Assembly (NCBI RefSeq): GCF_012027425.1
Contig: NZ_SNUE01000001.1
Span: 1 to 64,000, forward strand
Reading direction: 5' to 3'
Length of the DNA stretch: 64,000 nucleotides
Origin: Thermococcus sp. MV5
GTDB lineage: Archaea; Methanobacteriota_B; Thermococci; Thermococcales; Thermococcaceae
Part shown: positions 20,389 to 30,781 of the stretch, one piece after another
How the letters are laid out: every line of letters starts with the position of its first letter
Position numbering within the stretch: position 1 is the stretch's first letter
The notes under the pieces: generated by a model
The model's database searches: none
What the model was told of the DNA's origin: nothing
Seen by the model: only the letters and a program-made list of their open reading frames with translations
Program-made: the position numbers and the translations under genes

Positions 20389-20835
20389 ATGGAAATCCCG
20401 AACTATGGAAGAATAATGGCAAGGACAGTTGTATTTGATTTGAATGGAACACTGGGAGTTGAAGGAAAAGTAAAAGCAGACGTTAAAGAACTCTTAAAAG
20501 AACTTAGTGAAAAATATGAAATCGTGGTATTAAGCTCCGACACATTCGGAACCTTGAAAGATGAATTCAATGAACTTGATATAAAGATAGAAAGGGTTAA
20601 AGATGGCAACGAAAAGCTTCAGAAGGCCCTTGAATATGAGCCTTACATTGGCGTGGGCAATGGAAACAACGACGTTAGAATGCTTGAAAACGCTGAACTT
20701 GCCATTTGTGTAATAGGAGAAGAAGGAGCAAGTGTTGAGGCCCTTCTGGCTAGTGATATCGTGGTTAAAGACATTAAAGATGCGATCAATCTGTTGTTAA
20801 ATGAAAAAAGACTAATAGCGACTCTTAGAGGTTAA
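20389..20835 (+). CDS. HAD-superfamily phosphatase-like protein (soluble P-type ATPase-like)
   Basis: A 148-residue minimal HAD protein with motif I VFDLNGTL, motif II LSSDT and motif IV VGNGNNDVRMLENAELA. Motif I has Asn where many HAD phosphatases have the second Asp, as in proteins related to the P-domain of P-type ATPases. The start is ATG 20389, served by GGTGG. The stop overlaps the converging ATPase gene by 11 nt. Confidence 0.8.
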   Translation: MEIPNYGRIMARTVVFDLNGTLGVEGKVKADVKELLKELSEKYEIVVLSSDTFGTLKDEFNELDIKIERVKDGNEKLQKALEYEPYIGVGNGNNDVRMLENAELAICVIGEEGASVEALLASDIVVKDIKDAINLLLNEKRLIATLRG

Positions 20836-21934
20836 AACGCTCTTTAATAACCCTCTCAATAACCGGATCAATTATTTTATATCTCTTTTCCCCATCCCTA
20901 TATTCCGCATTAATCCAGCTCATCTTTTGAAGGGCCTCTAAAATAGCAGCTAGTCGTGAATTTGGCACTTTACCACTCTTAGACTCTAGAAATTCTTTTA
21001 TGAGTGTCCATCTATCAAATCCCATTGAAATAGCCCTCAACACCAAGATATACCTGGGACTCCGCTTTTCAAGTTCTCTTAACTCACCTTCGAGGAATTT
21101 TTCTGCTTTTCTCATTACTCCTTTTATAGCATTTTCAAAACTTTTCGTTTTTATGTAATTGTATCCAAACTCTACTAACCAGCCTGGAATTCCACCTAAA
21201 AGTTCTGCAGCATGCTCTACTTCTTCTTCCCTTATTTTTATTCTCGCCTCAACAAATCCCTGTCTCAAGAATTCAATTGAGAGTTCTTTGGAAAAGGGGG
21301 AGATAGTAATCTCATTATATATCCTACCATACAGTGGGGATTCATAATCTGAAACGCCAATAAGATCATGCAAAAGTCCTATTTCAGACCCTGTGAAGAT
21401 AAAACTTATATTTGGCAGATTGTCGTATGCGTAAGCCACAAGAGTTAAGAACTCCTTTCCTCCTCTCCGTCCGTAGAACCTCAAATATTGGGCCTCATCA
21501 AAGGCTATGATAATCTTACTGCGTTTATTTAATGCCTCCAAAATCTCCGAGAGTGAGACTTCAGGTTCAAAGTTCAATTGAAGCCCTGCAATTGATACTC
21601 CCTTCACTCTTTTCAGGTACTTAAAGAGTTCCCTTTTCATGGGATGGCTAAGGGAGTTTAATCCATTTTCAAAGGCTTTTAATAGAGACTCATTTGTTAT
21701 CCACCCTCCAGAATCAAAGTGAAGCTTTCTTACGTCTATGTATATTCCACTTTTTAACTCATTCAATACAACCTTGAGTAAAGAAGACTTCCCTACTCGC
21801 CTTATTCCTAAAATTAGGGTAATTGGATATTCTTTAGCCGAATTTTTTATCATTTCTATCTCTTGTTCCCTATCGAATATGTCCTCTCTCTTTTCCTTAG
21901 GTCTTGGGTCAAATAACATAGATAATGCCCCCAT
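20825..21934 (-). CDS. Archaeal-type AAA/STAND ATPase
   Basis: A 369-residue archaeal ATPase of the PF01637 type. FDREQEIEMIKNSAKEYPIT leads into Walker A GIRRVGKSSLL, Walker B is IIIAFDEAQYLRF, and IFTGSEIGLL is the sensor strand. The C-terminal third is a winged-helix region (RWTLIKEFLESKSGKVPNSR). The family is expanded in Thermococcales with no settled function; links to mobile elements and defence have been proposed. The promoter contains a perfect palindrome (see next entry). Either ATG 21934, possibly leaderless, or ATG 21919 is the start. Confidence 0.82.
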   Translation of the reverse strand: MGALSMLFDPRPKEKREDIFDREQEIEMIKNSAKEYPITLILGIRRVGKSSLLKVVLNELKSGIYIDVRKLHFDSGGWITNESLLKAFENGLNSLSHPMKRELFKYLKRVKGVSIAGLQLNFEPEVSLSEILEALNKRSKIIIAFDEAQYLRFYGRRGGKEFLTLVAYAYDNLPNISFIFTGSEIGLLHDLIGVSDYESPLYGRIYNEITISPFSKELSIEFLRQGFVEARIKIREEEVEHAAELLGGIPGWLVEFGYNYIKTKSFENAIKGVMRKAEKFLEGELRELEKRSPRYILVLRAISMGFDRWTLIKEFLESKSGKVPNSRLAAILEALQKMSWINAEYRDGEKRYKIIDPVIERVIKERFNL

Positions 21935-21965
21935 TACTTAGTAATGGTACCATTACTTATAAAGT
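21931..21965 (-). promoter_or_regulatory. TATA box with 18-bp palindromic operator
   Basis: On the minus strand a TATA element (TTTATAAG) at about 21957-21964 is joined to AGTAATGGTACCATTACT (21940-21957), a perfect 18-bp palindrome reaching almost to the start codon. CCATTACTTA also occurs twice in direct repeat (21931-21940 and 21950-21959). A repressor bound here would block the start site; autoregulation by the ATPase itself is possible. Confidence 0.65.
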
Positions 21966-22007: not shown

Positions 22008-22062
22008 GCGGATGATGATGAATCAAACCTGATTGATGAGGAACCCTATGAGCGCTGACGCC
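22008..22062 (+). ncRNA. C/D box sRNA with guide for pre-tRNA-Met C34
   Basis: A complete C/D layout lies in 55 nt: terminal stem GCG...CGC, box C ATGATGA (22012-22018), D' CTGA (22029-22032), C' TGATGA (22034-22039) and D CTGA (22055-22058). The guide before D is complementary over ten bases (GCUCAUAGGG) to the pre-tRNA-Met at 30,674, spanning the anticodon and the first intron bases. By the D+5 rule it targets C34. A TATA-like TTAAAAG lies about 25 bp upstream. The 3' end overlaps the antisense 3' end of nob1. The D' guide target was not identified. Confidence 0.82.
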
Positions 22063-22531
22063 TTTTCCTCTTCTTTTTAGGAAGAAGCCTAACCTTACTC
22101 CCACAATCGGGACATACATCGTCAGAAGGCTGAGTTTCAAACTTTTTCCCGCACCCTACGCAGACATAACGCCACTTTATCACTTTTCTTATACCTTTTT
22201 TCAAAGTCCTAAACTTAAGCCCTAGAAGAGTAGCAATGTTCTGAAGGTTATAATCATCAGTAAAAAGTTCTCCTTTAAGTTCATAGGCTAGAGCCAGTAT
22301 TTCAATGTCAGCATCACTTAATTCTCCAAGTTCACCAGTTTCAATAGCCTTTTCTTTAATTTTTTCAATGCTATCCTTTGAAGGCACCATAACTCTAACT
22401 TTGCCTGCACTAATGAGGCTTTCCAGTAAAAGTCTCGATTCTGGGTCTTTAACCTCTTCAATTACCTTTGGGGTTGTAATGCCCTCTACATCAATACCCT
22501 GGATAAATATGGCTGCATCTATAATCAACAT
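22046..22531 (-). CDS. nob1: Nob1 rRNA endonuclease
   Basis: A 161-residue Nob1. The PIN domain has acidic residues in [21 protein letters not shown] and [10 protein letters not shown] zinc ribbon follows (CVGCGKKF ... CPDCGSK) with a basic tail ending [10 protein letters not shown]. It makes the 3' end cut that matures 16S rRNA in the small-subunit precursor. The extreme 3' end lies opposite the C/D sRNA. Confidence 0.93.
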
Positions 22532-30673: not shown

Positions 30674-30781
30674 GCCGGGGTGGCTCAGCCTGGTCAGAGC
30701 GCCCGGCTCATAGGGCCGCTCCCTCTTGGGGGAGCCTGAGAAACCGGGAGGTCGCGGGTTCAAAGCCCGCCCCCGGCACCA
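30674..30781 (+). tRNA. Elongator tRNA-Met (CAT) with 30-nt intron
   Basis: The acceptor stem is GCCGGGG/CCCCGGC with encoded CCA (30779-30781). The anticodon CAT lies at 30709-30711. A 30-nt intron (30713-30742) follows base 37, the canonical archaeal position, and its removal gives the loop CTCATAA on a CCCGG/CCGGG stem. It has none of the initiator acceptor features, hence the elongator call. BRE/TATA (CGAAAGATTTAAAAA) lies about 30-40 bp upstream. The unspliced RNA matches the guide of the C/D sRNA at 22008. Confidence 0.94.

What the first reader, a model, noticed from the sequence alone, without database searches (positions are those of the whole stretch)
22008..22062. C/D box sRNA whose guide spans the anticodon-intron junction of pre-tRNA-Met
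Seen: boxes C, D', C' and D with a GCG/CGC terminal stem. The D guide is complementary over ten bases (GCUCAUAGGG) to the tRNA-Met at 30,674, and the fifth base upstream of box D pairs with anticodon base C34. The last three paired bases are intron, so only the unspliced tRNA fits. Known: archaeal elongator tRNA-Met carries Cm34 guided by a C/D RNA. Inference: methylation must precede splicing. The sRNA also overlaps the 3' end of nob1.
Basis: partly seen in the sequence, partly recalled or inferred. Interest (0 to 1): 0.72.

Follow-up and report, generated by a model that had tools for sequence, protein, structure and literature searches.

The report
Guide RNA for unspliced tRNA-Met
This is the Thermococcales version of a small RNA that directs a methyl group onto the first anticodon base of methionine tRNA and recognises the tRNA before its intron is cut out; the mechanism was already published, and comparison of 49 genomes here supports it strongly.

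Summary
Window 22008-22061 (+) matches Rfam sR41 (RF01126) above its gathering score. Its D guide pairs over ten bases with the elongator tRNA-Met gene at 30674-30778, with C34 opposite guide position 5; the last three paired bases are intron. The strongest evidence added here is covariation: intron bases +1..+3 are GGG, AGC or AGU in different archaeal lineages and the guide changes to match (49 of 49 genomes fully paired; 0 of 1020 cross-lineage combinations). The guided segment is also the 5' half of the bulge-helix-bulge splice motif, so guide binding and splicing should exclude each other. Methylation before splicing is already stated for pre-tRNA-Met (PMC2584109); sR-tMet of haloarchaea is the studied counterpart. 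In the window genome the D' guide is an orphan. One side result may be new: in Methanofastidiosia and Theionarchaea the D' guide of this sRNA is complementary (9-11 bp) to an element at a fixed position inside the same tRNA-Met intron, suggesting two-site docking. That does not occur in the window.

The parts
22008..22061 (+). box C/D sRNA, Rfam sR41 family (stem 22008-22010/22059-22061; C 22012-22018; D' 22029-22032; C' 22033-22039; D 22055-22058)
   Evidence: Rfam RF01126 63.4 bits, gathering 54; sequence read
22044..22053 (+). D guide CCCUAUGAGC; G22050 is position 5 from box D and faces C34
22019..22028 (+). D' guide UGAAUCAAAC, probably an orphan
   Evidence: no convincing rRNA site; not conserved among relatives, whose D' box is often degenerate
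30674..30778 (+). elongator tRNA-Met(CAU) gene with intron; target of the D guide at 30706-30715, C34 at 30709
   Evidence: Rfam tRNA 54.8 bits; sequence; ARAGORN as run did not report it
30713..30742 (+). tRNA-Met intron (30 nt, position 37/38), first bases GGG pair with guide positions 9-11
   Evidence: exon stem CCCGG/CCGGG and loop CUCAUAA read; parsed
22046..22531 (-). nob1-like gene (PIN_6 plus zinc ribbon); its 3' end is antisense to the D guide

Best explanation
It is an archaeal box C/D guide sRNA of the sR41 family. It assembles with L7Ae, Nop5 and fibrillarin, and its D guide base-pairs with unspliced elongator pre-tRNA-Met from base 31 to intron base +3. Fibrillarin then methylates the ribose of C34 (Cm34). 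Guide binding occupies the 5' half of the bulge-helix-bulge splice motif (C32-A35 otherwise pair with intron UGAG), so the guide complex must leave before the splicing endonuclease can act: methylate first, then splice. Shown here: family membership, complementarity in the correct register, and its covariation across lineages. Inferred from known biochemistry: expression, complex assembly, methylation, and its order relative to splicing. The D' half appears to have no target in this genome.
For: Rfam sR41 above gathering score. Ten contiguous pairs with C34 at position 5. Same guide in all genera of the family sampled, including the large genus g3 where box D is CCGA. Intron bases +1..+3 and guide positions 9-11 covary as GGG/CCC, AGC/GCU, AGU/ACU: 49 of 49 genomes 3/3 paired, 0 of 1020 cross-lineage combinations, mean 0.41 of 3 against the spliced sequence. 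The literature describes the same arrangement in Pyrococcus (predicted) and haloarchaea.
Against: No transcript or methylation data for this organism. Seven exon bases also pair, so action on spliced tRNA is not excluded. In P. furiosus, mass spectrometry text assigns Cm34 to the tRNA called Met-i and does not, in the passages I read, report it for elongator tRNA-Met (PMC7668247). Intron +2/+3 are also constrained by pairing inside the splice motif.
Confidence: 0.92

Rival explanations
1. It guides Cm34, but acts mainly on spliced tRNA-Met; pairing with the intron is incidental.
For: Seven guide bases pair with the mature anticodon loop and base 31.
Against: The guide tracks the intron bases through three different types, 49 of 49, and does not track mature bases 38-40.
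Confidence: 0.05
2. It mainly serves another RNA through its D' guide, and the tRNA-Met match is secondary.
For: In other lineages the second guide of this sRNA fits 16S rRNA (11 bp in f2/f4/f5; 9 bp in Methanobacteria-type genomes).
Against: In the window genome no convincing rRNA site was found for the D' guide, and the D' sequence is not conserved in its relatives while the D guide is.
Confidence: 0.02
3. It is not a functional RNA but a by-product of the nob1 3' end, whose codons happen to resemble a guide on the other strand.
For: The D guide and box D lie antisense over the nob1 3' end.
Against: The sRNA is conserved where nob1 is not adjacent (for example L010, L015-L017, L193-L213), and boxes C, D' and C' lie outside nob1.
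Confidence: 0.01

Closest known systems
Rfam RF01126 sR41 (Thermococcales box C/D sRNA)
   Same: Whole-length match above the gathering score; identical D guide CCCUAUGAGcg and boxes
   Different: Only the D' guide differs from the Rfam consensus
Pyrococcus sR49, predicted guide of tRNA-Met Cm34 (Clouet d'Orval et al. 2001, as cited in PMC2584109)
   Same: Same target, same kind of separate sRNA gene, same reasoning that part of the intron pairs
   Different: I could not read the original sequence, so identity of sR49 with Rfam sR41 is likely but not checked; the name sR41 is used for another Pyrococcus sRNA in PMC2584109
sR-tMet of haloarchaea (Rfam RF02163; Joardar et al. 2011)
   Same: Box C/D sRNA for Cm34 of elongator pre-tRNA-Met; weak covariance match here, 29.4 bits, E 0.0044
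   Different: Below the family's gathering score of 50
Intron-encoded C/D guide of pre-tRNA-Trp (Cm34, Um39)
   Same: C34 methylation that uses intron pairing and so precedes splicing (PMC2584109, PMC7994747)
   Different: There the guide is the intron itself; here it is a separate gene
Human SNORD97/SCARNA97 (PMC6601510)
   Same: Box C/D guides of C34 in elongator tRNA-Met (abstract)
   Different: Two cooperating eukaryotic guides

Membership tests
Archaeal box C/D guide sRNA | Boxes C, D', C', D in order with a closing stem | tested here: met
   read directly at 22008-22061
Archaeal box C/D guide sRNA | Guide complementary to a target, modified base opposite position 5 from box D | tested here: met
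   10 bp, C34 at position 5
Archaeal box C/D guide sRNA | Binds L7Ae, Nop5 and fibrillarin and is expressed | not testable with these tools
   needs RNA and protein experiments
Rfam sR41 (RF01126) | Score at or above the curated gathering score | tested here: met
   63.4 bits against 54
Guide of pre-tRNA-Met Cm34 | Guide pairs across the exon/intron junction and covaries with the intron | tested here: met
   49 of 49 genomes, 0 of 1020 swaps
Guide of pre-tRNA-Met Cm34 | C34 of elongator tRNA-Met is 2'-O-methylated in the organism | not testable with these tools
   needs RiboMethSeq or mass spectrometry
Rfam sR-tMet (RF02163) | Score at or above the curated gathering score | tested here: not met
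   29.4 bits against 50: same function proposed, different family model
Intron-encoded pre-tRNA-Trp guide | The C/D RNA lies inside the target's own intron | tested here: not met
   separate locus at 22008-22061; the intron is 30713-30742

The most novel reading that the evidence does not exclude
In some lineages of this sRNA family the guide docks on pre-tRNA-Met at two sites at once. In Methanofastidiosia (f2) and Theionarchaea (f5) the D guide pairs with the anticodon/intron junction, and the D' guide (UGAAUCCAAU, otherwise a fit to 16S rRNA) pairs with an element UUGGAUUCA that starts 13-15 bases into the same intron. The intron would carry a copy of a 16S site as an anchor for the guide complex. 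The window's own genome does not have it.
Probability: 0.55. Interest if true: 0.5.

Novelty: already known. Interest (0 to 1): 0.27.

Why it matters
It links tRNA splicing to wobble-base modification: the guide reads intron bases, so the intron is needed for a modification and the order of two processing steps is set by base pairing. The covariation shown here is independent evolutionary support for that published idea and gives one reason why tRNA-Met introns are kept in these archaea. The possible two-site docking in relatives would show an intron shaped as a landing pad for a guide complex.

Tried and rejected
(1) D' guide target in rRNA: no convincing site for the window guide; the longest run, 11 bp with two G-U, lies outside the rRNA gene in the flank of L131. 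Treated as an orphan. (2) D' guide against the tRNA-Met intron in Thermococcales and the other sampled lineages outside f2/f5: nothing beyond chance. (3) Bacterial promoter and terminator scan: nothing, and not informative for an archaeon. (4) The MFE fold of the pre-tRNA is not the cloverleaf/BHB form; the BHB was read by hand from exon/intron pairing. (5) A pattern search for other CAU-anticodon tRNAs in the genome found none with the pattern used, so specificity against initiator tRNA-Met and tRNA-Ile(CAU) was not tested. (6) A simple pattern search for the guide in genus g3 gave mostly chance hits because box D there is CCGA; a covariance model solved this. (8) The parser picked a wrong CUCAUA site in G008; corrected, since its tRNA is identical to the window's. 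(9) G089 was left out of the covariation count: its guide has one mismatch (at A37), although its intron positions pair.

Full report
What is there. The window contains a box C/D sRNA at 22008-22061 (+). It matches Rfam sR41 (RF01126) over its whole length with 63.4 bits against a gathering score of 54. The D guide CCCUAUGAGC (22044-22053) is complementary to GCUCAUAGGG at 30706-30715 in the elongator tRNA-Met gene 30674-30778 (Rfam tRNA 54.8 bits; not reported by ARAGORN as run). Guide position 5 (G22050) faces C34 (30709).

Where the intron begins. The exon stem CCCGG/CCGGG and the loop CUCAUAA place the intron at 37/38, 30713-30742. The precursor can form a canonical bulge-helix-bulge: CUCA (32-35) with UGAG, bulges UA|G and AA|A, and GGC/GCC beyond (read by hand; the global MFE fold, does not show it). 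The guided ten bases are base 31 plus the 5' half of this motif. Binding of the guide and formation of the splice motif should therefore exclude each other. This is inference from pairing, not measured.

Evolutionary test. I collected the sRNA and the tRNA-Met of the same genome for Thermococcaceae and for more distant relatives. Three intron types occur at bases +1..+3: GGG in Thermococcaceae and in G083, AGC in families f3 and f5, AGU in f2 and f4 (36, 7 and 6 genomes). The guide is CCC, GCU and ACU respectively. In 49 of 49 genomes all three positions are Watson-Crick pairs; in 1020 cross-lineage combinations none has all three; against the spliced sequence the same guide positions average 0.41 of 3. 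This is the strongest evidence that the precursor is the substrate. The genomes are related, so the 49 are not independent; the independent information is the matching change between lineages. Predicted duplex energies for the window are -19.7 (precursor) and -13.3 kcal/mol (mature), so mature tRNA is a poorer but not impossible partner. Intron +2/+3 also pair within the splice motif and so evolve under two constraints.

Variation in the family. In the large genus g3 most copies have box D CCGA and often a deviating box C, with an unchanged guide core; Rfam sR41 misses or barely reaches most of those genomes. In relatives of G083 the same guide sits at D', and the D guide AUGAUGGGCGAU pairs with 16S CCGCCCGUCA; G082 has the same two guides in the opposite order. 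In Thermococcaceae outside g3 the D' guide is not conserved and its D' box is often CGGA or CCGA, so it looks like an orphan. [quoted passage not shown]

nob1 overlap. The neighbouring gene on the minus strand has a PIN_6 domain and a zinc-ribbon-like end, as in Nob1. Its TAG stop is the antisense of CUA in the guide. The same arrangement is found in all 12 same-genus genomes in which the sRNA was found and in some members of other genera, but the sRNA also occurs where nob1 is not adjacent. Overlap of archaeal C/D sRNA genes with ORF ends is common (PMC7994747).

What is known already. PMC2584109 states for pre-tRNA-Met that a separate C/D sRNA guides Cm34, names Pyrococcus sR49 as a predicted guide, and says that because part of the intron pairs, methylation has to occur before splicing. 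PMC4033218 lists sR-tMet of haloarchaea (Joardar et al. 2011, whose title names the elongator pre-tRNA-Met) as the guide of Cm34. The finding is a correct rediscovery of a known RNA and a known idea, in a genome I could not name.

A caveat from the literature. In P. furiosus, mass spectrometry text assigns Cm34 to the tRNA labelled Met-i (PMC7668247). I did not find a statement there about C34 of the elongator tRNA-Met, so direct evidence of this methylation in Thermococcales was not located.

Possible new point, outside the window. In f2 (Methanofastidiosia by the titles of L298 and L330) and f5 (Theionarchaea, L254 and L316) the D' guide is GAUGAAUGAAUCCAAU, which fits 16S AAUUGGAUUCA over 11 bp. 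The tRNA-Met introns of these genomes contain UUGGAUUCA starting at intron base 13-15, giving 9-11 contiguous pairs with the D' guide of the same genome in 6 of 6 genomes. Dinucleotide shuffles of each intron reach this in 8 to 47 of 20000 trials, and introns of other lineages show at most 4 bp. The f2 introns are otherwise dissimilar, and their D guide duplex is short (8-9 bp). The order of the two sites allows both guides to bind one precursor. This suggests two-site docking, but the sample is small (two families, and the two f5 introns are nearly identical), and the D' guide is also explained by 16S.

Noticed in passing
L242, L243, L246-L248, L250 (tRNA-Met introns); L209, L211-L213, L298, L322 (sRNAs): In Methanofastidiosia and Theionarchaea the tRNA-Met intron carries UUGGAUUCA at intron base 13-15, complementary (9-11 bp) to the D' guide of the same genome's tRNA-Met sRNA, which also fits 16S AAUUGGAUUCA.
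   Followed up: partly
L194 (G082); L175 (G083), L163-L192: The two guides of this sRNA (tRNA-Met C34, and AUGAUGGGCGAU fitting 16S CCGCCCGUCA) occur in opposite order in different archaea, like a circular permutation of the RNA.
   Followed up: partly
L136-L161 (genus g3): The sRNA has box D CCGA instead of CUGA and often box C UGACGA, with a long G-C stem and a conserved D' guide UCCAAGACGGG that fits 23S UCCGUCUUG (9 bp); Rfam sR41 misses most of these.
   Followed up: partly
L280, L303, L325: In some Thermococcales a different C/D sRNA carries the 16S guide GAUGAAUGAAUCCAAUG, paired with another D guide (ACCCCAGAGUGG).
   Followed up: no
window 21940-21957: Perfect 18-bp palindrome AGTAATGGTACCATTACT just upstream of the ATPase_2/MCM_C-like gene at 20825-21934 (- strand); possibly an operator.
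   Followed up: no
Rfam RF01126 naming: The name sR41 stands for different Pyrococcus and Thermococcus sRNAs in Rfam, PMC2584109 and PMC9014305, so lists of targets under that name cannot be merged safely.
   Followed up: no
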